Shown here piece after piece: positions 10,919-53,359 of a DNA stretch of 64,000 nt. The DNA is taken from contig NC_049992.1 in assembly GCF_000003815.2 (NCBI RefSeq), forward strand, positions 12,864,354 through 12,928,353, written 5' to 3'. Source of the DNA: Branchiostoma floridae (taxonomy: Eukaryota; Chordata; Leptocardii; Amphioxiformes; Branchiostomatidae). A model generated the notes under the pieces. That model did not search any database, was not told the origin of the DNA, and saw only the letters and a program-made list of their open reading frames with translations. The position numbers were made by a program, and so were the translations under genes. Every line of letters begins with the position of its first letter. Within the stretch, counting starts at the first letter, position 1.

Positions 10919-13900
10919 TCAGAAAACTCCAGGGAAGAATCGCCCGTGTATGGCAAACGGGATGTAAGTCTTGGCGTAGGCATAGTTGATGACGTTCAAA
11001 GTCTGAGCGTCAAGTATCAACAGATAACTCTCCTTTCTTGGCCCATCGAGAACGGTAGCGATGAGAACACCCTGGTCTTCTGCCTTAGCGTTTGGTTCGG
11101 GAATGAAGTAAGGTTCATTAGGGTAGTGATTAGGAAGGTACCAATACTTGTCCCCCTTTCCACCGTTGCAGAGATCTTTTTTAACGATGGCGAAGTTGTC
11201 GTGCACAGTTGGAGTTTGCGAGTCAAAGGAAAAGACGACTCCGTAGACGTAGCAGTAGTTCCCACTTCGATGATTTTCGTTGATCACCGGAAGCTCCATT
11301 CGGTTCACGAAGTTCAGCTCGGGTGTTTTCGGAGAGAACGTGGAGACCCCGACGCTCGATGTTTTCATGTTGAGAGTGAAGCGCTTTAACAGTGCATGGT
11401 TGGTCAGTTTGCTCCTCTTCTGTGCGTCTAGCATCGTGGCAATCTCAAACTGGTAAAGCATGGAGTTGTCCGGGTAAGTTATCATATCAACGACTATGTC
11501 GTCATCCTGCTCAAAGGCGTTGACGTGATGCACTGCAAAGAACCCCGGCGTTTTCATCTCTGACACTTTGCCGTCTTTAAGTGAGATAATCAGAAACTTG
11601 GTGTCATCCTTGCCCTCCCATTCAAGACATTTGCCCGCTTCAGCTGAGTTCAGCATTTTGGAAACGCTTACGTAGAGAGGATAGAGAGAGATCACGACGT
11701 AGTTGTCTGTGATAGAGAAGCTGTGCATGTATGACATTCTCTCTAACTTGACGTTTGTAATGATCTCTTGTGTGGTGGTGTCCTTCATTCTGTACAATGT
11801 GAGGGTGTGTTTAAGTCCCGGTACGATGTTTACAGTGTACACCAAGTTGATGGTATGGCCTGTTTTTGGTTCGTACAGGGGATGAGCTGTAGACATCAAT
11901 GAGAGAAGGCTTATGATTGGATGAGTGATGTCAGGTTTGACCAGACTTATGGTGTTCAGCGTACCAATGTCGAACTTAGAAAAGACAGCGCCATCGGTGA
12001 GACCGACGAACTCGGCGTTTCGTCCCGTTCCTATCTTCCAGATGTTTGCGTTGGTGTTGTCGATGCCGTTCACTAGAGATTCGGCCCTCTCTTCGAACGT
12101 GAAAGCGGGGTTAACGCCGTCAAACGTGATGGAGGTGGCGTAGTCGTTCTCAGCGATAGACCGTGTGTAAGTGGACGTGCCTAGGAATTTGGCCGAGAAG
12201 AGAATCTTTGTGCCGTTGTTGATCTTGAAGGAGTGAAGCTTAGCGAAACCGTCAAACGTGTGGATGACGCTCCGCCCTCCGATGTTAAAGCGACCTGGGC
12301 CGTTTCTTACCTGAAAAAAAAACATAGAAGAATGAAGTCAAATCTAACTTGATAAAGATTACAAAAGGTATAAATTGGTTTCCATGAGCCTGAGGTCGTC
12401 ATTAGATAGCCTTAGAATAGCGTATATTGCAGTGAAAGTTCGCACCATAACATTTGGTATTGACCCAGATCGTCATTTCAAAATGGCCGCTTACGGAAAA
12501 GATTACTTCAAGGCACGGATCAATTTTCACAGAGGTAGATCTATATGACTGCTTTTTATCATTTGTTAAAAAACACAAAATCTACAAAAAAATTCGTTTT
12601 CTTCAATGAGTACTTGAACATTACAGTCTTTGTTAACATATCTATCACACGAATTCACGAATTTGCCTTCTCTTATATAGTAAAGTACAAGAGAGGAGGT
12701 TGACATTGACAAGTAGTTATAAACTGATTGACAAGTAATTATATTTCATATTAGCATAGTCCATTTTAGACCTCCAGGGAGAAAGATAAATGTGTTGCAA
12801 GCTATCAAATTCATTTGATAAATGTGATTTAATATAAGCGTATGAAGAAAAAAACAAACCCTTATTAATTAACGACTTAGGTACGGAAACATTTTCCAAA
12901 GATACCGTTATTTTATTATCCCCTACCGTACTGAAAGTTCTGTGTTGCTAATATTCTCGTGACCGGGGCGAATCAATATACATGCCAGTAGTGTCACAGT
13001 AAAGTATTAATGTGACTGTTAATCTGTGTTCTAGCGGAAACCCGGAAATACCAGCGGTCACTGTGACGGACTCGGCAACAAATGGCCTTTGGGCCACAGG
13101 AAGTAAATGTTATGGATGACATCAGGGCCCTCATTAATTTTCGATTTTTTCCCCTCTTGAGATGGTACATGGTGGACATGACGAGGAATTACCAAAATGG
13201 AATATTGTGTGGTAGCCTTGGTTGTATAGACGTTACACCAGTAGAGTAGATGTGGCCTTAGCCGTAGTTGTAAAATAAACTATATGTGTAAATCATATAT
13301 GGTTTAGTAGTAAAGTGGTATACCAATGCAGGAGCCATAAGTGTAGTTGTCAAATTAATTGGTAATTTATGCCAGTGTCACATTGAGCACATTTTTAATA
13401 CAGAAATAAACACTTCTTGGCTATGATACCATCTTTACGCAATACGTAAAAGTATGACTTAGAAGACAACAAAATGCAAAAAAAACGGAAGAAAATTAGT
13501 TCTTTATCTCTGAAATTATTTCAGTCATCTACGACCCCACAGTGCCGCCAGTGCCGCACTGCAAGTGCAGTGATCACATGAGAGTCCAAGTTTTTAGAGA
13601 TTTGAAGTTTTCAGAGGATGTTTTTCATAAAATCTATTTGTCATGGCCTTATTCAGGAGACGAATGACTCGCTGACTCTCGTCTGTCAAACAGCTGGGAC
13701 CTTGTTGCAATGGAACAAATGTTGACATTTCTCTGCTTATCACGTTGTGTAACATACTTAGTCAACACGCAATGAGTAAGGCAGTCATGCCAAGTCAATT
13801 AATCAATCAGAATGTTTGTTTGAAATGGTTGCTCAGTCCTTAGTTAGACACCCGAGTCTCTTTTGTTTCATTTGTAAATGTGACATTTCTGTCAAATAGA

Positions 13901-15349
13901 TGTTGTGGGTTCCTGTACAAAGATCTACAAAGACAAAGGGGCATTCAGGATGTAGAGATAAAATGTGTCATGAAAAACGACTTTTAATTTCTTTTTCGTG
14001 TAGGACTTTCACACTCTTGTGTGTTAGGCACTCTGTGCCATCGATGTAATTTTTGTAAAAATTTGTAAAGATTCTTTAGGTTGTCTGTTGATATCATCGA
14101 CACAATTAATTACACAATAAACAGGAGTCCTAATATCAACAATGACATAATTATGGTCGAACGTATACATTTCGTGTGGATTTTGCTCATCTTATAACCA
14201 ATCATTAGCATGGACGTTTTGCATTATACGGAATGAGCACGTGCACGTCATTCATATGCCCACCGTTTTGTGATTGATAAAAGGTGAACGAACAGGCAAA
14301 GATTCCACATGACTGTTGAAAAACGAGGAGAATGACTACTAGACTGTAAATGATATGAAGTGAAATCTTTTAGTATCAAATTTCAGAAATATCCTCACAA
14401 TCGCAGTTTTCTATCTATGACTACATGTACTTTGTGTGTTCTCATGTGTGTTTTGTTCTCAACACGTATGGAACCTCTATGCAAAAATCAACGAGAATAG
14501 ACAACTCTCTTTTATAGTTATCTTTCTATACTCAAACGCGGTGTGTGCACATATACGAATACACTTCAGTCAGACCTAGTTCAGGGTCCATGGTTAATTA
14601 TGGGCAAAGCTTCTCAAATCGAATAACAATCTGTTAAACAGTCATTCTTATATATTCTTATAATACCCCCTTTGCACTAGAACGGCACTCCCTCTCTGCA
14701 ACTATACATGTATAGTACAATCCCCGTGATCCAATCTCTGCTTGGAGAATTATCTCCAGGCAGATTTACCAGTGGCATAAGATAGTATCAAAGCTGGCTG
14801 AGGAGTACAGCTGGCCAAAGGGCGTCATCTGCCACTGGGAAGACCAAACACTCTCCTAGGCCGGCTTCACTCCTCTGGCAGCTTTTGATACTATCTTATG
14901 CTACCGTATGATCTGCTTGGAGATTACTTGCTTGGACAATACCTCCGGCCTTTTAAAGTCACAATACGTGAGAGCGCAGTGCGATTGCCGTCTGGTGGAA
15001 AGGGGTCTTAGATACATACACAACTCGCACGTGTTTAAACACAGAAATTTAAACACAACCTTGGATGGTCAAATTTTCACAAAACATCTACTGGTAGCTA
15101 GGCTACAGCCGTCTCCGGCTAAATTGTTACAGAACTCTCAATGAATGAGTTAAGAGAGGAAATACTCACGAAAGTGCCGTGGACCCAGTGTGGGACAGGC
15201 GTGCTGTTGGACCACTGGATCGGCCGATCTCGGAATTCTTCAAAGTTATCTGTGAAGAAATATTCTAACCCAACGGTGCTTGCTTGAATGAAGCACGCGA
15301 GTGCCAGAACAACAGTGGACAAAAAGATAACCTTGTTTCTCACCAACAT
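10919..15349 (-). CDS. Carotenoid oxygenase-family protein A, predicted secreted
   Basis: Two exons: 15349-15170 and 12310-10919, phase 0, donor GTGAGT and acceptor TTTTTCAG, giving 523 aa. The family (BCO1, BCO2, RPE65, NinaB) is Fe(II)-dependent and cleaves or isomerises carotenoids and retinyl esters. The splice restores GTF|VRNGPGRFNIGG, the classic N-terminal family motif. The four iron-ligand histidine motifs are present: STAHPLYEP (H203), YMHSF (H256), HHVNAFE (H321/322) and FAIHGRFFPG (H515). The PDPCK loop is replaced by VNPAFT. The chosen start, MLVRNK, is followed by a hydrophobic core to about residue 23, a signal-peptide shape. An upstream in-frame ATG at 15379 is possible but would bury that core. 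Paralogous to B and C, but with no intron at their exon 2/3 junction (TYTRS is continuous). The substrate cannot be told from sequence. Confidence 0.88.
13430..13580. mobile_element. Partial MITE related to 8827 and 25379 elements
   Basis: It contains 'acgtaaaagtatgact' and 'agaagacaacaaaa', shared with the element at 8827 (plus) and with the reverse strand of the element at 25379. It ends near 'cactgcaagtgcagtg', which resembles the family terminus. One end is missing or diverged. Confidence 0.5.
14750..14926. mobile_element. MITE, 'TCTCCAAGCAGA' TIR family
   Basis: The left end, 'tctccaggcagat' followed by 'gcataagatagtatcaaagc', is inverted at the right as 'gcttttgatactatcttatgc' ... 'atctgcttggaga'. 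The arms are about 48 bp. The inner motif 'atagtatcaaagct' is shared with the element at 56459 and the half copy near 61220. It lies inside intron 1 of gene A. Confidence 0.75.
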
Positions 15350-15438
15350 TTCGAGGCAGTTTTTTTCTGAGGTGTACAAGAACGAGATGACTGAGTTCTT
15401 GCAAATTTAGAAGTGAGACAAACAGCTTTAAGAGGGGA

Positions 15439-15444
15439 TTTATA
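15439..15444 (-). promoter_or_regulatory. Candidate TATA box of gene A
   Basis: The minus strand reads 'gatataaatcccc', with TATAAA about 90 bases upstream of the chosen ATG (15349). A start of transcription near 15410 would leave a leader of roughly 60 bases. No experimental support. Confidence 0.4.
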
Positions 15445-15714
15445 TCAATTTAGGAAATGTTTGTCCTGTCAATCACTTAACAAATAGAGACATTGGCATG
15501 ATGATCTCATATAGTACTACTGCGCATGTGCGGTATGTCGACGGATCACGTGATTTGACGGACTGTATGAGCAGGTGACCGTGACATGTCATATTTCATT
15601 TCAGACAAAAGATAAACCATTCTGTGAGGTATTGTCCCCGATTATATATATATATATGTGTAGTATAAAAATATATAGTTCTTTTAATCATAAAAACTGA
15701 AGCTTGTTACATAA

Positions 15715-15885
15715 AGCTTAGCTTGTCTCCCTCTGCTTCCAAAAAAGAAGTCAAACCCAACCTGTTTAGAAATAGCCAACACTAGTATTAGAGTAGAATA
15801 TTGTTCATGACTGTCCATTGTCACTATGTTTATACCATTTACTTACAATTAGCCCTAAACTTGCAAATAAACTTCTATATTGAAT
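15715..15885 (+). mobile_element. LINE 3'-end fragment
   Basis: 'aaaaaagaagtcaaacccaa' followed by 'ttagagtaga' and a terminal 'caattagccctaaacttgca' then 'aataaac' matches, with divergence, the 3' ends at 17755-18010 and 47755-48118. These are 5'-truncated copies of one non-LTR family. This copy keeps only the last codons and the 3' untranslated tail. Confidence 0.65.
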
Positions 15886-17318
15886 ACGCTGTGTACTATA
15901 CGGCGTGATTGGAAATTTCCATACTACTATTGTAATACTGTATGACGTAGTGTTACCTTCTAGCAATTAGCGCAAGCTTAGCTTGTGCAAATCAAAGTTC
16001 AACTAATCAATTATGCAACATTAATCGTCGGACTCAGGGACAGTCAGAAAACCTGTTAACATTACACATATCTCGCTGCACATAGACTGTTTACCGTGTC
16101 TGTGCAATCTTTTATACTCAAATAAAATAACAATTAACCTTTAGACTTATTCTGTAGTGCTGATACGTAACAGGTGGTAGGTCCGGGGTTCATTTTTTAT
16201 GTTTTTCAGAACAGGAACAGGAAGTTCAAATCTTTTAACTTCCTAAAGTACTATTTCCAAAGAAGGTTTTTAGGTGGCGTATGTATCTATCTGACTAAAG
16301 TTTGTATGCGGTATATCAGCATAACTCAGTAATGGCTGCATTGTCCTATCAAAAAGAAATTATTGAATTGCCCCCCCCCCCCCAACCCCCCCTGTCGGCT
16401 TACTGCAACAGAACGTCTAGCCCGTGTTCTTGACAAGCTATGGTAACGATTTGAAAGTGGTAGATAGCTCTTAGACTTAAAAAGAAGTGATATGCGTTTG
16501 GGTCCTCTAGCTTCTTTGGAACAGCAAGGGCGTATCAAGGCAAGATCGACAAGAAGGTTTAAAAAATTTGGCAAAGGCATGCGTTTAAGATTTCTTAATT
16601 GAATAACAATGGGTGCAAACACGAAATTCTAATATTATTTACTTAACGTATTGTGTAATGTGAGTGTGTTTGCCGACAATTATGTGTGTTTGTTTCGTCG
16701 ACTGTGGCTCACGGTCCTTCTTCACGGGATTCCGAAAAACAACTTACCGTTGCTGAGTGACCAGAGCGGTTTGCAAGAATGGTGAGGCCATAGCAAGTAA
16801 ATTCATGGGTGTCATCAGCGCGCTCATTTTTTACCATTGACTTTCGACTGAATACAAAAAGAAAAAGAAATAAGGACAAGGGAAAATTGTTTACCTCTAG
16901 AGCTGGTCTACATGAACAAAAAAACTACAGAAAATTGGGGGGAAATGACACAAGCTCGGAAGTTGTAGAAGCGACACTTGGTGTACTAGTGTTTCAGTAT
17001 AGTTGCAAACCTGGTAAGTGATGCTACCACACTAGTGCCACTTTGTGCACTGATCGAATACAGGAATGGGAGATTTCTTGTCCGTGATTCCATGTTTTTC
17101 TGCTTCATTTCTCCTACAACGTTTTATGTTCTCTAGTCTGAAATCTCTTGGTAGTATTAGTCATTTGGGATTCATCAAAGAGAGGTGTCGATTTTATGTA
17201 AGTGGCAGCAATGCATATGCTTTACAATATCTTCGTTGCGAACGACAACACATTAAATATCTAGCATGTTTGCAGTACTTTCAACCTTTAGAAAGCAAGC
17301 AAACATAGAACCAGGTCA
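15886..17318. other. Gene-free stretch between genes A and B
   Basis: No supported gene. A poly-C/poly-G tract (about 16371-16391) is present. Frames of 60-100 codons (16326-16622 minus, 16809-17021 plus) show no recognisable domain and no splice context. Confidence 0.4.
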
Positions 17319-17427
17319 GCGTGGCCTTGCATAACTCCACTTGCAGGCTTCAGGCCGTTTGGAGCCTGCAACGGAGGCGAGAACTGTCACAGGACGTGTA
17401 GTTTGGTGAAGTGGAGTTATACAACGC
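17319..17427. mobile_element. Short inverted-repeat element
   Basis: 'gcgtggccttgcataactcc' at the left pairs with 'ggagttatacaacgc' at the right, giving arms of about 24 bp around a core that contains a second inverted pair ('gcaggctt', 'ggagcctgca'). It is followed by a (CA)n run. A MITE-like, non-coding element. Confidence 0.55.
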
Positions 17428-17754
17428 ACACACACACATACATACACACTCACACACAAAATAAAAGGCAGCCCCCGTTCGAAGCCTGGAACGGATCTGA
17501 GGCTATAACCGTTCCTGGTGACTGTTGCTTCTAATTTACGGTTCCAGTTAACACATCAACACATGCACTGTGACAGTGTCCACGCACTGCATACGTTGGT
17601 ACGAAACAACCACACCGGTAATGTGTAAGTCCGTTGTTACTCATGTGTAATTAGCAACATTACCACACGTACTATGAGCGTTTGCTGTGGAGTATTGTGG
17701 AGTATCGAGTAACATGATGATCACGTTAATAGCCACTTTCCCTCTATCTTTTAG

Positions 17755-18010
17755 TTGCAACATTACGACAAAAAGAAAACCGTTCTCCTTCTAACTTCAC
17801 AAAACCCACACATAATAGAAAAGGTGGGATCTTTCTTCTTCCGCTGTCTTCGAAAAAGGAGTCGAACCCAATAACCCAGGACGTAGAGTTAGCCTTAACT
17901 AGTTTTAGACTAGAGTAGACACCTTTGATATTGTTTTTTTTTTACTTTTTCTGAACCTCTCATGTTACCTGCAATTAGCCCACGGGCAATGATGTGTAAT
18001 AACATTCTCT
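17755..18010 (+). mobile_element. LINE 3'-end fragment
   Basis: The plus strand encodes a tail like LLTSQNPHIIEKVGSFFFRC then LRKRSRTQ, ending in a stop. This is the same peptide tail as the copy at 47755-47979. It is followed by 'gttacctgcaattagcccac' and the common 3' terminus. 5'-truncated, dead copy. Confidence 0.8.
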
Positions 18011-18985
18011 ATTAACACACGGACTCTGGCAGTTTGTAGTGACCTGCCAGGTGACCGTGAGGTCATTGACTTAACTTACAGTATTTGTTTATTATCCCTA
18101 AATAAGAAACAAAACGTTTTATTGGACTGGTCTACTTGTTGCCTGACCTCCATGACGTTGCCCACAAGAAGCGCCGCCTATCGGATTTTCAGAAATTTTC
18201 AGCTACAGGCTTCTAATCAATCTGCCACCGTGAATCTGCAGTCATAGTTCAAACATTCTTTTAGAGATTCCAATTTCTCATTTTGCTTCATAACCAAGTT
18301 TATGTCATAACCAGACAGCAGTTACTAGTAGTAGTACCCAGTCTCGTCAGGTGGTTGCTACATTGACATGTATATCATTACGCGCTCCTATCGGTAAATT
18401 GTGGTAGTTCAGTCCCCCGCTATGTTGTGACTATATCTATACGCGCCAAGAGACCTTTCCAATGATAGCAAGTTTGGCCTACTATAGCTAGAAGACACTT
18501 TATATGCTAACCCTTACCTGTTTAGCTAGGGTTGGGGTAAGGGTTAACTTTAAACACATATATCTCGAGAAGAAAGCACTAGACTTTAAAGCGGTTTTCA
18601 GATTACAACTACGTTTTAGAAACGGTAGAGGGCGCTTTTGCGCGCATACTGGTACACTGCGCGTCGAAGATCTATCAATTAGATGGAAAAGCCACTCTTT
18701 AATTGCTCGGTGATCAATGTACGTAAAAGATTCATATCAATTTTGCTTCTGATGTTATTGGCTACATGTGGTTATCATGTAACTGACGGAGTGGTGTATG
18801 TTATATTTTGAAGATGTTAAATGCTGAATCATTATTTTTACTCACATGACGTCAAAAGTTAGTAGCTGTTGGCATATTGCCTGTTTTATTCGATAAACCG
18901 AATTACAATGTTTTGCAATAATCAGACAAATATGCAAATTAAGTGCCAGTTTGCATAATTTGCATTTCATGATGTACATCTCTGT
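18011..18985. other. Gene-free stretch
   Basis: No gene or element boundary recognised. A small palindrome, 'gttaaccctta'-like, occurs around 18508-18546 ('gctaacccttacc' against 'ggggtaagggttaac'). Confidence 0.35.
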
Positions 18986-18989
18986 CTAA

Positions 18990-19440
18990 GCTACCTACAT
19001 ACCAAATATCATGTAAATTTGTCATTCCCTTCTTCAGTTATCGTCCTTAGAAGATTTTGACAAAAATGCCCCTGCAGTTCCAGAGCAACCTGCTAGGGGA
19101 ACCAAATATACACCAGATATCCCTTATGTCACAAGCTATCTGCCATCCAAAAAGCAAGACCATAGCACATCCAGTTCAAAAGATCCAAAAAATGAATTTC
19201 TGCTGCAGTACCAAGGTCACATACCAGGGGGCCCAAAATTGACCTTGACCTTTGTCTTCCCAACACCTACCCACAAACCAAATATCATCGTAATCCGTCC
19301 AGAGGTTCTTGAGTTATGCTCACTACAAAATCCGGACACACAGACACACACACACACAGACACACACACAGACACACACACAGACACACTCAAAACTATA
19401 TCTCCATTTTTCATGGAGATAACCACCAATCCATTTGTAC
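18990..19440 (+). repeat. Dispersed repeat with internal (CA/GACACA)n
   Basis: The block has the phrases 'ccaaatatcat' (twice), 'gttcttgagttatgctcac' and 'aaaatccggacacacagac', then a 60-base run of ACACACAGAC units and the ending 'tatctccatttttcatgga' + 'gat'. A related ending, 'acacctccattttatggagg', with 'gccaaatatcattgc' appears in intron 1 of gene B (about 24320-24490). I infer an interspersed repeat family, probably a LINE 3' region or SINE. The tandem CA run lies at 19337-19390. Confidence 0.6.
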
Positions 19441-19559
19441 TGACATGATTGTGCCTCTTCTTCAAACTAGTCGAACACCAAACTTGAAAACATGCTTTTG
19501 CCTTCTTCAAGAAGCTATTTCATGCTTCGCCGGGTACGAAAAGTTGCTGGTGTGCAGTT

Positions 19560-20300
19560 GCCATCGGTCATATCAAAAGTACATGCTTGTTGAGCACTGT
19601 AGTCCCACACTTTTCCAGGTACATAAATTATTGGTGATTGTGGTACGTAGTTGCCATCATCCGCCATATCAAAGTACATGGTTGTTTAGCCTAACTAAAA
19701 TCGCGCTCCTAGTGGTCGGCCCTACAATTGCCGAGGCCCTCGAGGAGAGGGTCATTAAGGTTTCAGAACACAGTTTTTCGCCTATGGGGATTTACATGGT
19801 TAAGGACCCTAAAGTGAGGTGGTTCGACGACTCCAAACGTATAGTAGGGTGCAGATACAATTTACAAGAATTTAGTAAGTTAAAGTTGAGGGTATACATA
19901 CAACCTACAAAATATCTGAAAATGAGCATAGATTTGCCGGCTCGTTTTTCTATAATAGACACTCGCCGGCCGAAGAACTAAAGTAATCCTACTTATGCAG
20001 TATCACCACCGATGTATTCCTCTACCATTCACGCTGCACCATTTACCACAGATTCCACCTCGCTGTTGTGCATGGAAGAATAACTACGGCCTTTACAAGT
20101 ACTGCGGTGTACTTTTTAACAAATACTGTGTTATGAGACCTTAACCCCAACCAGCGCGGGATTGTGCAAACAGGCTACATGGTTGTTGAGCATTGTAGTC
20201 CGGTACTTTTCCAGGCACGTAATATTGTTGGTGATTATGGTACGCAGTTGCCATCAGCCATATCAAAGTCCATTGCATTCTGCGGAGTCCCTCCCCCGGA
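19560..20300. repeat. Internal direct duplication, ~130-bp copies
   Basis: The segments at about 19560-19690 and 20165-20290 share order and wording: 'catgcttgttgagcactgta' against 'catggttgttgagcattgta', then 'acttttccagg', 'attattggtgattgtggtac' against 'attgttggtgattatggtac', and 'cagttgccatcagccatatc'. A further partial echo, 'ctcgcgctcctag' type, sits near 20870. A frame at 19700-19981 (KVRWFDDSKRIVGCRYNLQE) spans the gap between copies, and I do not recognise it. It could be a degraded mobile element. Confidence 0.45.
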
Positions 20301-22283
20301 ATGTCGCGAGGGTCGTGGACTTTATGATTTACTCAACCACGATGCGTGCATGCACTCTTCACGCGTACTACAGAACATGCAGACTATTTGTGCGACCTAT
20401 AAGCCTGACAAAGATAAGATTTTCCCGGTTAGTCCTTTGTTCTAGGTCAGTGCCCATTTATCAAAAAGGTGAAGGCAGTCCCGTAGCCTTTCAGAAGCTG
20501 TGGGGAATCGGGGGTGGGGGGGGGGGGGGTATTGGAATGTGGAGCCTACTCTTCAAGCAGAGATTGGTGGGGAAAATCGTGTCCTTTTCGTGGCCTTTCA
20601 TTAAACGTTTTCTTCAATAACCGCGAATACCCATCATTGCCCCTGAAGTGTACAAGTCGAGCAAATATCGGAATGAGGACATTTTTCTTAAGCAGTGCGT
20701 TTCCAAAGGAAACGAACATGTAGCCTCTAGACCTTGCCTAGCCACTCAGCAATTCGTCGTCACTACAAGATATTAGCTAATGTAGTACTAGCAACGCCGG
20801 CTCGACTTCAACCACATTCTCCAAATGCAGGGAGAGTTTTGGAACACTCTCTGAACATTATCCTGACTAAAGTCGCGCTCCTAGCGGCCTTACAGTTGCC
20901 ACCACTTATACTTTTAGGGGATGAGGGGTTCATTAACCCCAGCCAGCGAGAGACTGACATGTGTAAACACAGGCTATCTAATCATCTGCTCGGGTGGGAC
21001 TCTGTGACGTAGTGAAGATGCCTCCTGATGCGTTCCCGCGTTGCTGTGGTAGATTTTGTTTTGGACTAGCGGCTAGGTAGACATTTGTCGATGATTTGTT
21101 TGGTCTGTTAATGCTTTTAGATGCCTACACATACGATTGACAGAATACATACATTTCGTGGTCAAAATCTCCAATTCCATCTCTTGTATCAACTCTTAGA
21201 CATGAAGATGGAACTAGGTAAAGGTATCAACTGTTCAAACGGAAGGCTCCCAAGAAAGCTGTCCAAAACAATGGTTTGGCATTGCGTTATGTTTGCCATA
21301 TCATCAGCCCTTTCTTTCATTCAAAGATGCATTCATTAACATATGTAATAATCTATAAGAGGAAACAAAGGAAAACATGGAAATGTTGGTAGAATTTATC
21401 TTCCAAACAATATCTTTATTTAGGCCATTTCATACAAAATGTGCACATAACCATGTACAGGATATTTGTGCCTCCGATACCAGATTTATTGATCTTCTAT
21501 TTTATACAGATAAAGGTGATCCCTTTAGGTATAACATTATCCTTATCATTCCTCTAAAACGAGAAAAAGTAGCTCTCAAACAATATCTATCTAAAGATAT
21601 TGTAACTATTATAGTAGCCGTCTTCATTATAATCAGCCATGAGGAAATGTACAGAGTCCTAGTGACAGTAGTAGTGTGGTGTATTTTCCACCTTGTGTAT
21701 AGACTTTAGCAATCATTCATCAAATAATATCAAAGCTTTTGATAAATCAAGACAACATCATCTTGGTATACATATATTTTGAAGTATCCGCATAATTAAG
21801 TCTGATTAATTATGAATGATGCATTCTGTGCAAGGGCTAAAGTTCTGCGAAACAACCGTGGTTGATACTTTGTACCTTTCACGAATGTGTTTATTCCTTT
21901 GTTTGGTCATTTTATGTAAGGATTATAGGTCACTTTTGGTCATTTTATGTAAGACGTATCGTTGATATGTCTTAAAGGTTATAGTCCGCTAAGATCTAGG
22001 CCAGCATTTTGTCAAATTGCCATTGTACTGTGTGGGCAGGGTGGGTTGGTTGGTTGGTGTAAACAAAATCCATACCAAGGAGGTTATAACCTGTTATAAA
22101 TTTTTTGGCCATACAAAGCCCTTTCCTCCCAACGTTTAACCTTTTACAAAAGCTAATGGGTTATTAAAGGCTTCTCTTGCACAGCCAATAATGTCTCTCA
22201 CTTTACGTTACTTACGTTACTGGTTGTGTAAAAGAAAACTCCAATATGCCAACCTGATGAAATTATTTTTTGGAAAAGGGACT
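20301..22283. other. Intergenic stretch 3' of gene B
   Basis: Contains a poly-G tract (about 20510-20529) and several short frames without domains, for example 21377-21709 plus, whose translation is hydrophobic but not recognised. No supported gene. Confidence 0.35.
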
Positions 22284-22398: not shown

Positions 22399-25124
22399 TC
22401 ATTCCTTGGGAAAATACTTTCCATGGAAGCCAAACGGAATGTATGTTGGCATGTAGGCGGTGTTGATAGGCTTCATACTTTTGCCATCGAGAATGAGAAG
22501 ATAGCTTTTGCCCAGATCGGCATCGAAAACAGCCGAGAGGACAACTACGTCATCTTCGGCTTTCCCTTCGGGATTGGGGACAACGCTCGGCTCACTGACG
22601 AAATGATTCGGGTGGTACCAATAGAGATCTTTCCCAGGGGTGCACAGGTTCTTTTTTACCAAAGCGAACGTACCGTTTAGAGCGTTGGAAGGAGAAAAGT
22701 CGAAAACGACGCCATAAAGGTAACAGTAGTGGCGGCCTCGGTAGTTTTCGTTAATGATCGGGACGTCAATTTTGTGGAGATAGTCCTGCAAGGGATCGTC
22801 ACTGCGGAAGGTTTTAGTTTGAACGGACTTGTTTACTATATCAATAGTGTAACGATAAAGCCTGGATTTGGAAGGCCTTTGGTGTAGTGTGGTTAGGTTT
22901 CGCAACATAGGGAGCTTATAATCAGCAAAAACAGACGCCCCCTCCCCAAACTGACAGACGTCGGCAACGATTTTTCCATCGGCCGTTTCGTAAGCATTGG
23001 CGTGATGCGTGTAAAATATGGGATCGGTTTCTACCGTGTCTATCTTGCCTGTTTTGAGGTTGACGACTACTACTTGTGTTTTTTCATCGGGAAACCATCC
23101 CAGAGCATCTCCCACCATCGCTGTGTTCACCATTTTTATAAAGTCAAAGAAGGCGGGTTGAACAAAAAACACGGCGTAATTTTCAGTCAGGGCAAAACTA
23201 TGCATGTACGATGCCTTGTCTGACTGAAAGTTGGCCAAAACCTCGAAAGTGTTCAGGTCCTTAATCCTTATCACGTAGTACTGTTGTTTCTGACCGGGGA
23301 TCAAGCTAGGGAACATTAAGTAGTTAATGCTGTAGTTTGTACCGGGTTCTATGAGAGGGTGGGCACAGGACTGGACAAGACGAGACCAATGAATGCCACT
23401 CACTTCAGGAATATCAACTCCTTGTGTGGCAAGACTTTCCAGGTCAAATTTAGAGTAGACCCAAGCGTCTGTGAGCGCGGCGTACACACTGTTGTCCCCG
23501 TGTCCGTACTTCCACACATTGACGTCGGTGTTGTCGTAAGGAAACTCGAAGGCTTCCAACCTTTCAACGGGGTTGAACCCTGGGTCGACTCCGTAGAACG
23601 TGATGGCTGGGGCATAACGGTTAGCCGCCTTAGATCTGGTAAAGACAAGTAAAAGAGGGTACATTGTAGTTTGTAGAGACGCTCTGTGAATACAAGTAAA
23701 GGGACCTAAACCAAGATAGATTAAATCATTGTAATGTCTTGGCGCAATTCAGCCGTTTGGCTGCTATATCTGTGACGACAAAGCTTTATTTCTATTTCGA
23801 AATAAAGCAGTCATACATATTGTTCGAAGTCATTTTTCCGTCATATTCTACGTGAAATACCATATTTGACGTACATAATTCATGTACTCAGAGAGTACAT
23901 ATGCGACATCACTGTGTCGTTTTCATTATACCTTAGCATTTACTTGATAGCACTCTATGATAGTGTCCTAGTATTTCTGTTGCAGAAAATATTACCAATA
24001 CTGGTTTAGAATTAATGATTAGGAAAATCGAACTATTACATGTGCAGCCATGCAGCAGGAAAATTAGGATGTATTTGTTATTGTTTTTTGGATCCATAAA
24101 AGCTAACCTTGTGTAGGCACTAGTTTGTAGGAAAGCCGAAGTGAAGTTGATGGCCTGCTGTCCAATGGCTATGCTGTGAATCTTGGCAAAACCATCGAAC
24201 ACGTGAATGGCTGAACGGCCACCAAGCTCGAACATCGCAGGTGCATTCCGGACCTACAGAACAAAATCATCAAGGAGAACCGAGTTAACGGTACAATGAC
24301 GAAAGCAGCATGTTATCCATATCAAGCTAAACCACCAGGAGACCCAAATTCAAACCTGATCATCAAGACAATACACCCAAACAATGTGCCAAATATCATT
24401 GCAACGTGTTCTGGAGATATATAGCAGGAATTCGGAAACGCCCCACTCAAGCACATACTACTGAAAACTACACCTCCATTTTATGGAGGTGAAAAGAATT
24501 AAGAGCGTTTCAGCTTTGAACTCGGTCATGAAAGTGCAAACATCTGTGGATGATTGCAAAAGCCTTTTGCCCCAGATTACAAAGTCTAAATGCATTGGGG
24601 AGAAAAACAAGTGAGATGACTTAAGCTTCTCCCGATAACATATAGCACATATTTTGCAGTCATTTGGTTTCTTTGTGTTATAACGAATATCTGGAAAGCG
24701 TGTTTTAAGCATTGGAAACATATAATACATACAGTACATGTAATGCTGACGAGCCTGATTTTTGGAGCAGATAAACTATCAGCTACGGGTCGCTATCATA
24801 TGGCATGTTCCAAAACGTAGTTAACTTTCTCAGCAACTGATCAACAAAATACATTTATGTTTTGCTAGTGCGATTTTCTGAAATACTAGTATTACAAACC
24901 GTATACGGGTTCTTCTTTTTTTCTCAAGACAAGTGGCATTGTCTACTCACCAGAGTTCCTTCCAGCCATTTCGGGATGGTGTTTTTGGAGTCGTACTTCA
25001 TCGGAACGTGCTGGAGTTCCTGCACATTTGTCTTGAAGAGGTCCATCAGATGTTTGGGTGTGGCTGAAACCACCGACAGGGTCAGAACCAGGAGAACACA
25101 CGCGCGGCGCGTGGAAAACGTCAT
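22399..25124 (-). CDS. Carotenoid oxygenase-family protein B, predicted secreted
   Basis: Three exons: 25124-24951, 24253-24108 and 23635-22399, giving 518 aa. The junctions read GTL|VRNAPAMFELGG and YT-R(split)-SK, with GT donors and AG acceptors. The iron-ligand motifs are SCAHPLIEP (H199), YMHSF (H252), THHANAYE (H317/318) and FGFHGKYFP (H511). The family RNGPG motif has become RNAPA, losing both glycines, and the PDPCK loop reads VDPGFN. MTFSTRR plus a hydrophobic core ending ...SVVSA looks like a signal peptide. Sequons occur at NYS, NLT, NKS and NGT, and two cysteines (C411, C438) are shared with A and C. There is no KDEL-type tail. An upstream ATG at 25154 is possible, but MTFSTRR matches the start of gene C. 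Closest relative is gene C, divergently oriented 5 kb away. The substrate is unknown; cleavage or another role such as pigment binding is possible. Confidence 0.9.
24320..24500. repeat. Dispersed repeat in intron 1 of gene B
   Basis: It shares 'aaatatcattgc' and the terminal 'ctacacctccattttatgga' + 'ggtga' phrase with the repeat at 18990-19440. Probably a truncated member of the same interspersed family. Confidence 0.5.
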
Positions 25125-25243
25125 TGCTGACTTCTTCTTATCCCAGAACTCCAAAGAAAAGTATTGAAATGAGAGATCTAGACTACTGAACTTCTGTTGT
25201 CCTCACCAAAAATTGTCCTTGTACCCAGGGAGCTCCGACGCGG

Positions 25244-25249
25244 GTTTTA
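25244..25249 (-). promoter_or_regulatory. Weak TATA-like element of gene B
   Basis: The minus strand reads 'ccttaaaacccgcg', a TTAAAA core about 120 bases upstream of the ATG. Weak match, placed by distance only. Confidence 0.2.
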
Positions 25250-25378
25250 AGGAAAAGGAAGACGATTAGATCGCCTCACAATTTAAAGGAGAAGGCACGT
25301 GGGGTCACACATGCAAATATTCCAATTTTTGTGTCGAGTCAACTTCGGTCTGTAAATCATTTACAGCAAAAGTGAGCT

Positions 25379-25589
25379 CTTAAGGTGCACTCTCACTGCA
25401 CCTGCGTCAAGCTTGCGTCACTGCGTGGTTCGAATGATACTCAACGAATTTCAGAGATAAAGAACGTATTTTCTTAGTTTTTTTCGTATTTTGTTGTCTA
25501 CTAAGTCATACTTTTACGTATTACACAATGTTTAAATTAAAAAAAAATCACGCAAGCTTGACGCAAGTGCAGTGAGAGTGTACCTTAAG
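25379..25589. mobile_element. MITE with 'TTAAGGTGCACTCTCACTGC' termini
   Basis: The left end, 'cttaaggtgcactctcactg' then 'cacctgcgtcaagcttgcgt', is inverted at the right as 'caagcttgacgcaagtgcag' then 'tgagagtgtaccttaag', with arms of about 40 bp. The interior, 'catacttttacgta', is the reverse of a motif in the elements at 8827 and 13430. Non-coding. It lies just upstream of gene B, between B and C. Confidence 0.8.
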
Positions 25590-25614
25590 TTAGCTAGGAC
25601 GATGTTCCTATGGA

Positions 25615-27258
25615 ATTATATACATATATAACTTTATTGCACAACAATTGTACGAGGTACAATGTATGGCATCTACATAACTACAGTTCTATAGCTTAAC
25701 TAACTAATACAGGAGTTGTAGTATGGGATAAGCTTCTTACAATCATTGGAAGCTTTTACAATCAGTTGAGGAGTTTCTAATATCCAAACCTTCTTTAATA
25801 TATTTTCCTATATCTGCCATGCAGGGATTGTTACATGTCATGATGTATTTGAATTTGCACTTCAGGTCCATTGAGATAAATCCTTGTGTATAAAATGACA
25901 ACCTTCTGTATAGAGAATTGCGTATTTCAGAATATTTGGGACATACAATCATAAAGTGATATTCGTCTTCAATTAACTCTGGACAGAATGGGCAAACCCT
26001 CTGGTCGATAGGGATTTTTTTGAATCTCCCGGTTTCTATATTTAATTTGTGACAGCTAATTCTGAGTTGTGTGATTGCCCTACGAATGTCAAGGCTCTTT
26101 ATGGTTGAAATGTAATTTTCTTGCTTGTAGTGCTTATTCAATGTAGAAAGAGAGGAGAGTTTAGAATTGGTTCGAATAGAGGAATGCCAATTTTGCACGT
26201 ATATATCTTGTAAACGTTGTCGTAACTGAGTGTTGATTGTATCTATGTGGTATGATCTCGGGTTCAGCCATATGTGTCCAAAGCCTTGGTAATTTAGGAT
26301 ATTTTTTACGTGGACAATCCAATCATGTTCTCCGAATGAAACAGTATTGTAAGTCTCACGAAGAAGGGCATCTTCGGGCAAGTTAACTAAACGATGCCAA
26401 TATTTAACAAGTTGCATTTCGGCATCAATCATAGCTGGGAAAGTTCCCAGTTCTCCCCTGACACCATCGTTTGAGGCTTTGGCATGAATGCCTAACAGAA
26501 ATTTTTGGAAGCGCATGTCAATGACGTCAAATTCTGGAATTTGTTGATTTGAATCTAGGTTTATAATTTGGAAGCCGTTCTCTTGTAAAATTTGGTTATT
26601 GGCATGACGCAGTAGTGTTTCTTTATCTGTATTTCTTTCCAAACATACAACATAAGTACTATTCAATGCAGAAGATGTGGTTTTTCTAATGGTAGCTGGA
26701 AAGTTGTCTTGAATGTCAAGTTTTTTAAGTAAAGTAGAAAAAACCTTTGAGGAGGATTCACAGATGTTATTGGTATGAGATACAATGATTCTTATACTTT
26801 TAGAAAAACGGTCAAAGCATGTGATTTCTGAACAGTACATAAAGATGGGTTTTACGAATTTATCGAATAGATTTTTTCCGAGATTGATTGAAATGTCCTT
26901 ATTGGAGAATAAAAGAGCCTTGAGTTTGAAAAGTGCTCTCATTGCTTTGGTTTTCAAATATTTCCTGGCGGTTTTGAATTTTCCGGAAGATGTGAAAGGA
27001 ATTCCGAGGTATGTATAGCTGTCAGTGATTTCTATATTTTTGCCATAAATATGGAATTTGTCTTTGTTATTCTTATTAGTACCTTTGCCAAAAACAACTA
27101 CCTTGGTTTTTGAGACATTGACAGATAGCTTCCATTTCTTACAATATTTTTCTAGGCAGTCAATACAATGCTGTAGTCCTTGTTTTGACGATGAAATCAG
27201 AGCGAGATCGTCTGCCCAGGATAAACAATATAAGCGGTTCTTACATAAACCCTAGGCA
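25615..27258 (-). pseudogene. LINE 3' half: reverse transcriptase C-terminal part
   Basis: The minus strand is open from about 27255 to 25743. It starts with SWADDLALISSSKQGLQHCI, the (F/Y)xDD catalytic motif of reverse transcriptase, here WADD. It then continues through YLGIPFTSSGKFKTARKYL and a long C-terminal region to a zinc-finger-like tail (CPFC...DEYHFMIVCPKY). The 3' end carries AATAAA followed by 'gttatatatgtatata'. Endonuclease and N-terminal RT motifs are absent, so this is a 5'-truncated insertion. Its uninterrupted frame suggests it is younger than the frameshifted copy at 7318. It sits in the spacer between the divergent genes B and C. Confidence 0.88.
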
Positions 27259-27654
27259 TTAAGACCTGCTCGTAAATGGTTGGACACACACAAGATTTGT
27301 GACTACGTGACAGGGGGAGCATTATCATTCAACCTACTTTGCATATCAAAATAAGAACTAGTTCATGGACAGCAATGGTCCTTGAGAGTACAGTTGGAAG
27401 GAAGTGGAAATATTGTCGTAAAATCTTATTGAAACTTGTGCAACCGACTTGTAGCATTAACCATGCAGACAGCAAGACGCGATCCACAGATGACCCTACC
27501 ACCAGAGACTCCTGACCATGGTCAAGGGCATTTGTGGAGTTGGGTGACGTAATAGTGGGGTGATTGGCCACGTGCCTTGGTACGTTGACCTGTAAACTGA
27601 ATTGTGCATGCCCTTGCCACGAACTTGCTTGCTGTACACAGGCGAAACTATTCA

Positions 27655-27785
27655 TTGCACAACAATTGTACAAGGTACAACGTATGGCATCTACATAACT
27701 ACAGTTCTATAACTAACTTAAGGCTTATCTAACTGATACAGGAGTTGTATGGAATAAGGTTTCTTACACTCATTGGCGAAACCTT
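27655..27785 (-). mobile_element. Short LINE 3'-end copy
   Basis: 'attgcacaacaattgtacaa' followed by 'ggtacaacgtatggcatcta' and 'tgatacaggagttgtatgg' matches the terminal ~130 bases of the 25615 and 7318 LINE copies in the same orientation. Severely 5'-truncated. Confidence 0.8.
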
Positions 27786-28429
27786 ATTGATGTGATTACC
27801 TAGATTTTGTTAAAGACATTAAACGGAGATTCTGTGTTTAAGGAAAATCATACGAGCACGTAAAATCCCCACCACACATGTAGACAGGAGTAAGCCTTAC
27901 TTCAGATAGATTTTAGATCTGTCTGGATATGAAGCGCGTGCTGTTCAGTGCAAACCTTGCGTATTACGCCATGAGGCGGTTAACCGTGTATGTACTATAG
28001 TAAACAGCACAGATTGTGAATGGTCGGGTGGTCGTCCTCGACCTTAACCCTTGACAACAATAACCTACATGTACAGGTAGGGCAATGCCTTGCAGCCTCT
28101 GACAAGTTGTCAGATACTTAGACCGTGACGTGACTAAATCCTACGGTATATTTTCTACCGAAAAGCGTTTCGGCTGAAAAAATTCCTGCTTGTATGTTTC
28201 ATGATTGTGTGGAGAAAGTTAACACATAACGCTTCGCCACTGAACATTCATGAAAGTTTCTGACCTTTGAACAGTCTAAACTTTGAATGACCTTTATAGT
28301 ATGACGTATGAAAGGTAAAACAAATCTTGCATAATATGGCCAAATGGTGCCCTATGACTAAAGGTCATTGGTTCCAAAATACAAGTATCGCAAAAGTAGG
28401 GCACACGCGTGCCTCAAACAAACGGCGAT

Positions 28430-28755
28430 AGGGCCCTGTCATTCTTTTTTTATTTATTTATTTGTTCAGCTGTTTACAAACAGCCAGGGTTGCCCAACTA
28501 GCCGTAGGCTATTATCAAGGGCTAACCCTGTACATGTTCGCACATGTTCGCGCACGACGGGTTATACCGCCCCTTACGGGGTGACACACCCGTCCGGGTG
28601 AATGATGTAGATCACCATGAGGCTGATACGAGACAGAGGTTCGCCAGGCCTCCATCCGGGTGATTTTGAAGTGAATCACCAACTCCCGACAGAAGGATTT
28701 GCACCAACGCACACCGCACCATCGCACGTGTGGGGGTTCTTAGACCTCATTTACA
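28430..28755 (-). mobile_element. SINE or LINE-tail insertion with (AAAT)n tail
   Basis: On the minus strand the element ends in 'agctgaacaaataaataaat', a simple-repeat tail typical of CR1/L2-type 3' ends. The preceding 'gggttagcccttgataatag' then 'ctagttgggcaaccctggct' recurs at 34612-34700 in the same sense. The sister duplicate at 29505-29520 lacks this sequence, which gives an empty-site comparison. I cannot decide between a SINE and a truncated LINE. Confidence 0.65.
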
Positions 28756-29689
28756 AACCGGGGCCCGGTCGGGCAGCATGTGGGACGAAAAGTAGGATAT
28801 ACAAGAGAACGCAACACGCAACACGTAGAAATAATAAGTCATGAGCACAATGCGTGTTTCTTGATACAAAATTGTATTCTTTCTTATTTCGGCGAGCAGC
28901 CCGGCCGGGCCCCGGGTTGGAAATGTGACGTTAACATAAGGCCTACGTCACATTTCCAAACCGCGGACCAGCCCCAGGCAGCTTTTGAAAAGGATGATAT
29001 AAAAGACACCAAGCTACATAAGACGTAAAGAGTCATTCATGGGCAGTTATTTTGTACATTGCCAAGAATACATTTCTTTTTTTTCGTTTTCCCGACTGGG
29101 CCCCGGTTTGGAAATGTGACGTTAACCAAACCAAGCTGATGTTTATCAGAATTACATCTTGTATCATGGTAGATCTAGCTAGTATTTTCAGCCTTGATTA
29201 TCGAGGGTCTCGGAGGGGGATACCAGAACTTCATAGCAAAAAACAGCCAGGGTGCTTTGATTATATGGATGTACATAGTATCCCATATTCAGCACACATG
29301 CAAAGTATGAGCCTATTTGACCGACCCTCATCTCCCAACCTCTGCCCGGTTATTCTGATTTTCTCCTTGGACTGTGAACAGTCTGAACTATGAGTGACCT
29401 TCGTTGGTGTACTAACGCTAAAGTCTTACATAAAATGACCAAAAGATGCACTATGACTAAAGGTCATTCACCCCCCAATAATGCAGGTAGCGCAAAAGTA
29501 GGGAACACTCCAAAACGGGGCCCGGCCGGGCAGCATGTGGAAAAGTAGTATATACAAGAGAACGCAACACGTAAAAATGATTAGTCATGAGCACAATTTG
29601 TGCATGTTTCTTGATACAAAGTTGTGTATATATTTCTAGCATGTCTAGACGCTAGAAATCCCTCCAATGATTGTAAAAAAAACATTTTC

Positions 29690-29790
29690 GTCCCATACTA
29701 TGCACCATTGTATTAAGTACAACTGTAGTTATGTACGTATCAGTAGATGCTATTCTTTGTACTTTGTACAATTGTTGCGCAATGAACTTA
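29690..29790 (+). mobile_element. LINE 3'-end copy, plus strand
   Basis: 'cgtcccatactatgcaccat' ... 'acaactgtagttatgtacgt' ... 'actttgtacaattgttgcgc' is the reverse complement of the 3' terminus of the LINE at 25615 (diverged). Only about 100 bases remain. Confidence 0.65.
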
Positions 29791-30124
29791 GGTATCTTTG
29801 TCAGAGTTATCGTGGTAGCTTGCATCTTTAGCTTTTGTTTTCGAGGGTCTCGGTGGGAGATACCAGAACTCTACAACGAAAAGCGGCCAGGGTGCTTTTA
29901 TTATAAGACTGTACATAGTTTCACATGATCTAACACAGATAGAAAGTATGAGCCTATTTGACCAACACCCATCTCCCGACCCCTGCCCGGTTTTGCCTGA
30001 CTTTCTCCTGATGAAATGACTCGTACGTGATGGTGACGTGAAACAGAAAAGTTTCAAAGTTCAAAAGTTCATAGTGATACCAGTCACAAGCCTTTCCCTG
30101 TCGCGTAGAAGACTCTAATTAACC

Positions 30125-32890
30125 ATGGCGTTTTACACGGTCCGTGTGGGCACCCTTCTCCTCGCCATGACGTTGGCGGCGGTGGTCGCGTCGGCTCCCG
30201 ACGGGGTGCTGAACCTCTTCCGGACGAACGTCGAAGAGCTCCGACACGTCCCGATGAAGTACGACTCTGACGACACGGCCGTCCCGAAATGGCTGGAGGG
30301 AACACTGGCAAGTAGAAATCCTACCGGTGCCCTTCATCACTCTGCATTACACGCGTATACGATATGAAGACCTTCTCCAGCAAGATTTCTCCAGTGTCAC
30401 TGAAGAAAGACTACGGATGGCTGTCTGAAACGTCTGATCGTTTCTGAAAAATTATATCCATGCTTGAGTAACTGCTTTTTGGCGAATCTAACCAGAATGT
30501 CTAACCTACATCGACGTATTCATGTGCTAGTCTAACCTTAGCTACTGATCTGACTGTTAACATTTACACTGGTCTGAAATATTTCTTGATTAGGGAAGAT
30601 AGTTTTGATAACATTAATATTTTTTTACAATTTTACTTGTAGGATGTAGCTGACGCTTAGATAACATAGAAATTGAGAGTTTTATGACTCTTATGACTTT
30701 CTTATTTAAAATGGCATGCTCTGTATTGAGTCTTAATGGAGGTAGCTCTAGGTTCAATTACATATCAAGTAATGTTACTGTATACACAGTGCTGTTGTCG
30801 TCATAATCATTTTGACTTTAAAACGGATAAATACTGATTTATCTTATTGTCTTTTAGGTTCGTAATGCTCCTGCAATGTTCGAGCTTGGTGGCCGTTCGG
30901 TCATCCATGTCTTCGATGGTTTCGCCAAGATGCACAGCATAGCGATTGGGCAGGAAGGCTTAAACTTCTCATCGGCTTTCCTACAATCTAGCGTCTACAC
31001 CAGGTAAGTCGTCATGGAATAGGAGGTAAAATCCACTGATGGTTTGACATACTATGTCACGTACACGTAATGGGTGGCTAATATAATCGTAGGAACTGTA
31101 ACTCGTGTGGAAGGCGTTTGTTTGACTAACAATCATTCTGGGACCTTAACTGTTACCTTTTTGAGTACTATTCGAATTCTTCATGTCAACCATTCTGAAG
31201 AGGGGTGGAGTCTCATTATTAGTGACTAAAATGTGTTATAAGCCATGCATGACCCAGTGCGAATGTTGTGGTAAAACATCACAGTTGTTGCGGAAAATGA
31301 AGGAAGTGGTGACGTTGTCGCGCCTATAGTATCTTCTTTTAACAAGTACCGGTTGCATAGCTAGAAGAACTAATATCAGAATTGCACATTCAAAAACAAT
31401 TCAATCTCTACAACTAGATAAAAAATTGGAGATACAATTCAGTCTCTACAATTGGGTAAAAATGAGATTTACGTCTGGAAGTAAATCTCCTTTTTTATCC
31501 AGTTATAGAGATTGAATTGTATTTGAATATTGTTTACCTGGATTTCTCCCTCATGATGGTATCAGAATTGCATATTCCTGTGAAGACTATCTACGCAATC
31601 TTCTTGCACGAAATTAACATATTGACCACACAATTTATTTTTCCTGATAGGTCTAAGAAGGCCGGTCGCTACGCCCCGGCACTCACGTTCCTCGGGGTGG
31701 ACCCTTCCTTCAGCGAACTGGAGAAGATAGAAGCTCTGACGTACAAGTTCGACAACACGGATGTCAACGTGTGGAAGTTCGGACACGGGAAGAACAGCGT
31801 CTATGCCGGACTCACCGATGACTGGGTCTACGATAAGTTTGACCTGGAAACTCTTGCCACCACAGGAGTTTCCATTCCTCCGATTCCAGGGGTCACTTTT
31901 CTGACCCATTTTGTCCAATCATGTGCCCACCCACTTATAGAACCGGGTACAAATAACAGCATCAATTATGTACTGGAGCTGGGCTTGCTACCAGGTCAGA
32001 AACAAAACTACTATGTGGTCAGAATGATGAATCTGACTTCTTTTGAAATTCTTGCCAACTTTCAGACTGACAAATCAGTATACATGCACAGCTTTGGTCT
32101 GACTAAGAATTATGTTATATTTTTTGCCCATCCTGCAGTCGTTAACGTTGAGAAAATGGTTACAACAGTGGAGGTGGCTGAATCAATGCAGTGGTTCCCT
32201 GATGAAAAAACAACAATAGTAGTGGCCAACATCAAAACTGGGAAGGTAGAATATCTTCAACATGACGCCCTTTTTGTTACCCATCATGCAAATGCCTACG
32301 AGACACAAGACGGGAAGATAATTGTCGACATATGTGCCTCAGAGATGGGTGTATCTATTCTAACACAGTACCAAATTCCCATGTTGCGAAATCTGTCTGG
32401 CCTCCACCAAAGTGTGGCCCAAACTAGAGTTTATCGGTACACCATTGATCTAGCAAATAAGTCGGTAGAGGCTAAACCATTTCGCAGCAAAGACCCCATG
32501 CAGGACTTCCTGCACCAAATCGAAGTCCCGATTATTAACGAAAATTACCGAGCCAGACACTACTGTTACCTGTACGGCGTTGTTCTCGACTTTTCTCCGT
32601 CCAACCCTGTCAATGGCTCACTGGCTCTAGTAAAAAAGAACCTTTGCACCCCCGGGAAAGATCAAGTTTGGTACCACCCGAACCACTACGCCAGTGAGCC
32701 CAGCTTCATTCCCAATCCGGACGGTACAGACGAAGATGACGGTGTTATCTTGTCCTCAGTTTTCGACGCCATGCTTGAGAAAAATTATCTTCTCATCCTC
32801 GATAGTAAAACTATGAAGAAAATCAACACCGCATATATGCCGACTTACATTCCGTTTGGCTTTCACGGCAGATTCTTTCCCCGACAGTAG
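30125..32890 (+). CDS. Carotenoid oxygenase-family protein C, predicted secreted
   Basis: Three exons: 30125-30307, 30858-31003 and 31651-32890, giving 522 aa. Intron 1 has a GC donor (CTG|GCAAGT) and a normal AG acceptor. Intron 2 is GT-AG, and exon 2 has the same length (146) and phases as in gene B. The iron-ligand motifs are SCAHPLIEP (H203), YMHSF (H256), THHANAYE (H321/322) and FGFHGRFFP (H515). RNAPA replaces the family RNGPG, as in B. MAFYTVRVG then LLLAMTLAAVVASA is a good signal peptide. Sequons NNS, NLT, NLS, NKS and NGS and the cysteine pair C415/C442 suit a secreted glycoprotein. The start lies in a good context (accATGG). Exon 1 and the first part of exon 3 are distinctly more GC-rich than the rest. 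B and C are recent inverted duplicates. Reaction and substrate are not deducible. Confidence 0.92.
30420..30530 (+). mobile_element. Degraded LINE fragment in intron 1 of gene C
   Basis: 'tatatccatgcttgagtaac' followed by 'tgctttttggcg' and 'gtctaacctacatcgacgta' corresponds to 'catatccagttgtttgagta' ... at 47610 and to the palindrome region at 56760-56870. It is a shared fragment of a non-LTR family. Confidence 0.5.
31385..31535. repeat. Long hairpin in intron 2 of gene C
   Basis: 'caattcaatctctacaacta' then 'gataaaaaattggag' pairs with 'ctccttttttatccagttat' then 'agagattgaattg'. The arms are about 40 bases. The middle carries a second half copy ('caattcagtctctacaattg'). Probably a foldback element. 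Confidence 0.7.

Positions 32891-39091: not shown

Positions 39092-53359
<14,268 letters not shown>

What the first reader, a model, noticed from the sequence alone, without database searches (positions are those of the whole stretch)
10919..32890. Cluster of three carotenoid oxygenase-family enzymes that all appear to be secreted
Genes A, B and C each begin with a hydrophobic signal-peptide-like segment just before the catalytic fold. They also have several N-glycosylation sequons, a conserved cysteine pair (A C413/C441, B C411/C438, C C415/C442) and no ER-retention tail. Known vertebrate members are cytosolic (BCO1), mitochondrial (BCO2) or ER-membrane bound (RPE65). A secreted or lumenal branch with all four iron-ligand histidine motifs would place carotenoid cleavage, or pigment binding, outside the cytosol. 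I do not know of a described secreted animal branch, but I cannot search.
Basis: partly seen in the sequence, partly recalled or inferred. Interest (0 to 1): 0.75.

Follow-up and report, generated by a model that had tools for sequence, protein, structure and literature searches.

The report
Secreted lancelet carotenoid-cleaving enzymes (BCOL)
Three neighbouring lancelet genes encode carotenoid-cleaving enzymes with a convincing secretion signal, but this secreted branch of the family (BCOL) was already described in 2017 and 2020, so the finding is correct and not new.

Summary
A, B and C are complete spliced genes (523, 518 and 522 aa). Each starts with a strong signal peptide directly before a carotenoid cleavage oxygenase fold, keeps the four iron-ligand histidines and the stated cysteine pair, and has no ER-retention tail. 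The weak point is the sequons: A has only 2, and none of the three counts exceeds shuffled expectation.

The genome is Branchiostoma floridae: another of its genes is near-identical to the solved lancelet protein BCOLg (PDB 9plv). I found seven such genes, all with the signal and the cysteine pair. They form one fully supported group with 9plv, apart from canonical lancelet genes, RPE65 and NinaB.

The branch is already published. Poliakov 2017 (PMC5643517) named it BCOL, called signal peptides by TargetP and showed carotenoid cleavage by BCOLg. Uppal 2020 (PMC7221588) reports a significant fraction of BCOLg secreted from HEK293F cells and writes of "the secreted BCOL subfamily". A, B and C very probably are BCOLc, e and f.

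I did not find in what I read of those papers the BCOL-only cysteine pair or a BCOL-only Glu-to-Asp change at the RPE65 E148 position. Both are leads.

The parts
15170..15349 (-). Gene A exon 1; signal peptide 15281-15349 (23 aa, predicted cleavage after residue 23)
10919..12310 (-). Gene A exon 2 with stop; RPE65-family fold (PF03055, 281 bits); Cys413 at 11252-11254, Cys441 at 11168-11170
   Evidence: codon positions read
24951..25124 (-). Gene B exon 1; signal peptide 25062-25124 (21 aa)
24108..24253 (-). Gene B exon 2
22399..23635 (-). Gene B exon 3 with stop; PF03055, 239 bits; Asp163 at 23467-23469, Cys411 at 22723-22725, Cys438 at 22642-22644
   Evidence: codon positions read
30125..30307 (+). 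Gene C exon 1; signal peptide 30125-30193 (23 aa); GC splice donor at 30308
30858..31003 (+). Gene C exon 2
31651..32890 (+). Gene C exon 3 with stop; PF03055, 237 bits; Cys415 at 32564-32566, Cys442 at 32645-32647
   Evidence: codon positions read

Best explanation
A, B and C are three members of the published BCOL (BCO-like) branch of animal carotenoid cleavage oxygenases in the lancelet Branchiostoma floridae. Each is translated into the ER through an N-terminal signal peptide, folds as a propeller that holds iron by four histidines, probably with one hairpin disulfide, and enters the secretory pathway, so that it cleaves carotenoids or their derivatives outside the cytosol. Shown by others for the paralogue BCOLg: carotenoid cleavage in E. 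coli and secretion from HEK293F cells. Shown here for A, B and C: gene structure, signal peptide by matrix score, iron ligands, clade membership and (B, C) purifying selection. Inferred: that they are exported in the animal, that the cysteines are bonded, and the substrate and place of action, for which the gut lumen or body fluids of this filter-feeding animal are my guess.
For: Best solved relative of each is BCOLg (PDB 9plv): A 372.5, B 451.5, C 427.6 bits, against 97.5, 64.9 and 82.8 for RPE65. BCOL rows form one group at 100/100 in an 18-row tree. Signal-peptide scores in 7 of 7 genes. Four histidines and FDG in 7 of 7 genes, PDPC in 0 of 7. Mature dN 0.21 and dS 1.24 between B and C. Published: TargetP 'S' for XP_002610867, XP_002610868 and XP_002610869, consecutive accessions, the middle one 518 aa like B; BCOLg cleavage and secretion.
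Against: No expression, localisation or activity data for A, B or C themselves. SignalP/TargetP were not available here and the matrix was typed from recall. The 2017 authors took the signal peptides as possibly indicating traffic to ER membranes, and only 'a significant fraction' of BCOLg was secreted, from overexpressing human cells. BCOLg activity was measured in E. coli. Sequon counts are not above chance. A is only 39-40% identical to the other six genes, so its function may differ.
Confidence: 0.9

Rival explanations
1. The proteins enter the ER but stay there or on its membranes as resident carotenoid or retinoid enzymes, rather than being exported.
For: The 2017 authors read the signal peptides as possibly indicating traffic to ER membranes; only a fraction of BCOLg was secreted.
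Against: No KDEL-like tail and no second hydrophobic stretch as strong as the signal in A, B or C; the 2020 abstract calls the subfamily secreted.
Confidence: 0.08
2. The N-terminus is a mitochondrial presequence, as in BCO2.
For: 1 of 20 proteins in the published table (an oyster one) is called mitochondrial; the 518-aa B. floridae protein BCOLc, probably gene B, has the highest mTP score among the lancelet rows, 0.232.
Against: Long hydrophobic cores with only 1-3 K/R and no D/E in the first 25 residues of A, B and C; published SP scores of the five B. floridae members are 0.83-0.97.
Confidence: 0.02
3. The secreted proteins mainly bind carotenoids (pigment or transport proteins) and cleave little or nothing in the animal.
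For: Not tested here. All 8 BCOL rows have Asp where the 9 other rows with letters have Glu near the iron site, which could weaken catalysis.
Against: All four histidines and the two checked glutamates are kept; BCOLg lowered lycopene and beta-carotene to 31% and 39% of control in E. coli.
Confidence: 0.1

Closest known systems
BCOL subfamily, BCOLg of B. floridae (XP_002601288.1; PDB 9plv)
   Same: Same species and clade; signal peptide, cysteine pair, four histidines, FDG motif, short loop without PDPCK, Asp at B163 position
   Different: Different paralogues: A 40%, B 48%, C 48% identical to the chr2 gene, which is BCOLg; A lacks intron 2 and the SCAHP cysteine
Published BCOLc, BCOLe and BCOLf (XP_002610868, XP_002610869, XP_002610867)
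   Same: Three consecutive accessions of the same species, TargetP 'S'; the middle one is 518 aa like gene B
   Different: The other two are listed as 533 and 502 aa against 523 and 522 here; sequences were not compared, so identity is inferred
Archaeal CCO NdCCD (PDB 6vcf)
   Same: Second-best PDB match of A, B and C; equally short loop where canonical animal members have PDPCK
   Different: No cysteine pair; Glu at the Asp position
Canonical BCO/RPE65/NinaB
   Same: Fold family PF03055 and iron ligands
   Different: Have the PDPC motif; no cysteine pair; group apart in the tree

Membership tests
BCOL subfamily | Groups with BCOLg to the exclusion of canonical animal CCOs | tested here: met
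   100/100 in an 18-row tree; canonical and RPE65 rows were fragments
BCOL subfamily | PDPC(K) motif absent | tested here: met
   0 of 7 genes
BCOL subfamily | Four iron-ligand histidines and FDG motif | tested here: met
   7 of 7 genes and 9plv
BCOL subfamily | N-terminal signal peptide | tested here: met
   Recalled von Heijne matrix, 7 of 7 genes at 5.0-10.6; TargetP itself not run here
BCOL subfamily | Carotenoid cleavage and secretion | not testable with these tools
   Published for BCOLg only
Canonical BCO1/BCO2/RPE65 | PDPC(K) palmitoylation motif | tested here: not met
   Absent in A, B and C; present in 4 of 4 canonical lancelet loci
PF03055 carotenoid oxygenase family | Profile match over the curated cut-off of 27 bits | tested here: met
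   281, 239 and 237 bits

The most novel reading that the evidence does not exclude
The lancelet BCOLs are a secretory redesign of the carotenoid oxygenase fold. A disulfide ties the two ends of one propeller hairpin (the cysteine pair is in 7 of 7 genes and 0 of 10 other rows), and a fixed Glu-to-Asp change beside the iron site alters the chemistry, for example towards cis isomers or isomerisation, for extracellular processing of algal carotenoids in the gut lumen or body fluids. I saw neither residue change mentioned in what I read of the two BCOL papers; the 9plv structure may already show both.
Probability: 0.15. Interest if true: 0.5.

Novelty: already known. Interest (0 to 1): 0.2.

Why it matters
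The vertebrate members work inside cells, so a secreted branch moves carotenoid cleavage outside the cytosol. That point is already in print. What stays open is what the seven lancelet genes do in the animal. The window gives clean chromosome-level models of three of them and the genome gives four more, so expression, localisation and activity tests are straightforward.

Tried and rejected
Structure of A exon 2 (AlphaFold2, three rows): mean pLDDT 45.9, pTM 0.48, too poor for disulfide geometry. It shows strands at 354-362 and 368-379 (exon numbering) with the two cysteines at 353 and 381, as a hairpin would, but at low confidence. No fold search was run on it.

Prokaryote origin: one scan of genome contigs with the B/C/A alignment gave 1 relative among 37 pattern matches, a haloarchaeon at 28% identity. 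This gives no sign of recent transfer, but the scan used only two peptide patterns.

Sequon enrichment as support for secretion: rejected, counts are not above shuffles. Three positions are shared by 5 or 6 of the 7 genes, none of them in A.

N-termini of the canonical lancelet genes as a negative control for the signal peptide: not done; their first coding exons were not located.

Literature: searches for lancelet tissue expression gave nothing that bears on it; no paper on 9plv was found; a 2020 review of metazoan CCOs, whose DOI I recalled, is not held.

Full report
What is in the window. The window lies at C14:12864354-12928353 of a 513.4 Mb genome. Another CCO gene of that genome (chr2, locus L012) matches PDB 9plv, 'Beta-carotene oxygenase like g (BCOLg)', with 3 differences in 61 residues of exon 1 and 8 in 420 residues of exon 3 (counted by eye in the alignments); the 9plv chain sequence includes the signal-peptide segment. 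BCOLg is a Branchiostoma floridae protein, so the organism is B. floridae.

Gene models. A: exons 15349-15170 and 12310-10919, minus strand. B: 25124-24951, 24253-24108 and 23635-22399, minus strand. C: 30125-30307, 30858-31003 and 31651-32890, plus strand. They give open proteins of 523, 518 and 522 aa (a first try at B had wrong exon ends). Introns are GT-AG except C intron 1 (GC-AG). The PF03055 search of the genome gave 27 matches: seven long exons (three of them A, B and C) and short exons of four multi-exon loci. The four other long-exon loci gave models of 521, 519, 538 and 530 aa with the same three-exon plan as B and C. A alone lacks the second intron. B and C are under constraint: mature dN 0.21, dS 1.24.

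Signal peptides. A von Heijne matrix typed from recall scores 5.0-10.6 in 7 of 7 genes. In the window 310 ATGs have at least 45 open codons; 28 score 3.5 or more, and B, C and A rank 1st, 2nd and 5th. The first 25 residues of A, B and C hold 1-3 K/R and no D/E. No 12-residue stretch after residue 40 is as hydrophobic and none of the three has a KDEL-like tail. Between B and C the signal region diverges faster at the protein level than the mature part (dN 0.44 against 0.21) while staying hydrophobic. This looks like a cleaved signal peptide and not a mitochondrial presequence. SignalP and TargetP could not be run.

The cysteine pair is at the stated residues. It occurs in 8 of 8 BCOL rows (7 genes plus 9plv, which is the chr2 gene again) and in 0 of 10 other rows: four canonical lancelet loci, RPE65, 7wh1 BCMO, NinaB, ACO and two archaeal proteins. 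The four histidines are in 8 of 8 BCOL rows; several other rows are fragments with gaps at some of these columns. The sequon claim is weak: A 2, B 5, C 6 against shuffled means of 5.2, 3.2 and 3.5. Three positions are nonetheless shared by 5 or 6 of the 7 genes, B and C among them, A not.

What they are. Each of A, B and C has BCOLg as best solved relative by a wide margin (372.5, 451.5 and 427.6 bits; next, an archaeal CCO at 200.2, 122 and 153.9). A canonical lancelet gene instead has RPE65 as its best (340.8 bits; BCOLg 119.7). In an 18-row tree the BCOL rows form one group at 100/100 and the canonical animal rows another at 95/92; where the archaeal rows attach is not resolved. A is the deepest BCOL branch (93/92 for the rest) and 39-40% identical to the other six; B and C group with the chr18 pair (97/96). 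PDPC is in 4 of 4 canonical lancelet loci and in 0 of 7 BCOLs. At that place BCOLs have a loop four residues shorter, as the two archaeal rows do, so the motif may never have been there.

Already in print. Poliakov et al. 2017 (PMC5643517; parts 1-3 of 5 and passages seen) described the BCOL family: 8 lancelet BCOL proteins, two of them domains of one 925-aa model; no PDPC(K); four histidines; and TargetP 'S' for 19 of 20 listed proteins. Among these are XP_002610867.1 (502 aa), XP_002610868.1 (518 aa) and XP_002610869.1 (533 aa). The three accessions are consecutive and the middle one has exactly the length of B, the middle gene here, so I take them to be these three genes; the sequences were not compared. 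BCOLg cleaved beta-carotene and lycopene in E. [quoted passage not shown] Uppal et al. 2020 (PMC7221588; abstract, Results and passages seen) report that a significant fraction of BCOLg was secreted from HEK293F cells and write of 'the secreted BCOL subfamily'; the supplementary figure was not seen. A solved BCOLg structure is deposited (9plv).

Possible additions. (1) The BCOL-only cysteine pair: 'cysteine', 'disulfide' and 'glycosylat' do not occur in the 2017 main text, and in the 2020 text 'disulfide' occurs once, in the name of an antibody target, and 'glycosylat' not at all. (2) At B residue 163 all 8 BCOL rows have Asp and all 9 other rows with letters have Glu; I recall this as the RPE65 E148 / ACO E150 position, a second-shell partner of an iron-ligand histidine. 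Against weight on this: the 2017 DIVERGE2 analysis found no residue significantly diverged from BCO1 or BCO2. (3) The chr18 pair here (92% identical, about 318 kb apart) are two complete genes with start, signal peptide and FDG. The 2017 model BCOLa_2, which lacked the first methionine and FDG and which its authors suspected to be a pseudogene or misassembled, may be an artefact; that the chr18 genes are BCOLa and BCOLd is inference.

Mechanism and certainty. Shown in print for BCOLg: cleavage and secretion. Shown here for A, B and C: signal peptide by matrix, iron ligands, clade, and constraint for B and C. Inferred: export in the animal, the disulfide, substrates and place of action. The structure attempt was too poor to judge geometry.

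Verdict. Interest is low apart from the two diagnostic residue changes.

Noticed in passing
B residue 163, window 23467-23469 (-), and equivalents in A and C: All 8 BCOL rows have Asp where 9 of 9 other CCO rows with letters have Glu; recalled as the RPE65 E148 / ACO E150 second-shell position.
   Followed up: partly
10919-15349 (gene A): A lacks the second intron, the cysteine of the SCAHP motif and the sequons shared by the other genes, keeps the canonical RNGPG, and is the deepest of the lancelet BCOLs.
   Followed up: partly
L009 and L010 (chr18, 12.28 and 12.60 Mb): Two complete BCOL genes, 92% identical, on opposite strands about 318 kb apart; they may correspond to published BCOLa and BCOLd, one of whose domains was suspected to be misassembled.
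   Followed up: partly
30308 (+): GC splice donor (GCAAGT) in intron 1 of gene C, which may explain why older gene models differ in length.
   Followed up: no
25743-27251 (-) and 7542-8333 (-): Retroelement pieces: a reverse-transcriptase fragment (RVT_1, E 1.2e-8) between B and C, and a closely similar stretch downstream of A.
   Followed up: no
58082-59161 (-), 3313-4244 (-), L010 about 8402-9464 (-): Long open frames made of short tandem repeats, minisatellite-like.
   Followed up: no
42974-43306 (+) and 62009-62569 (+): Neighbouring gene exons: a PI3K C2 domain and a rhodopsin-family receptor.
   Followed up: no
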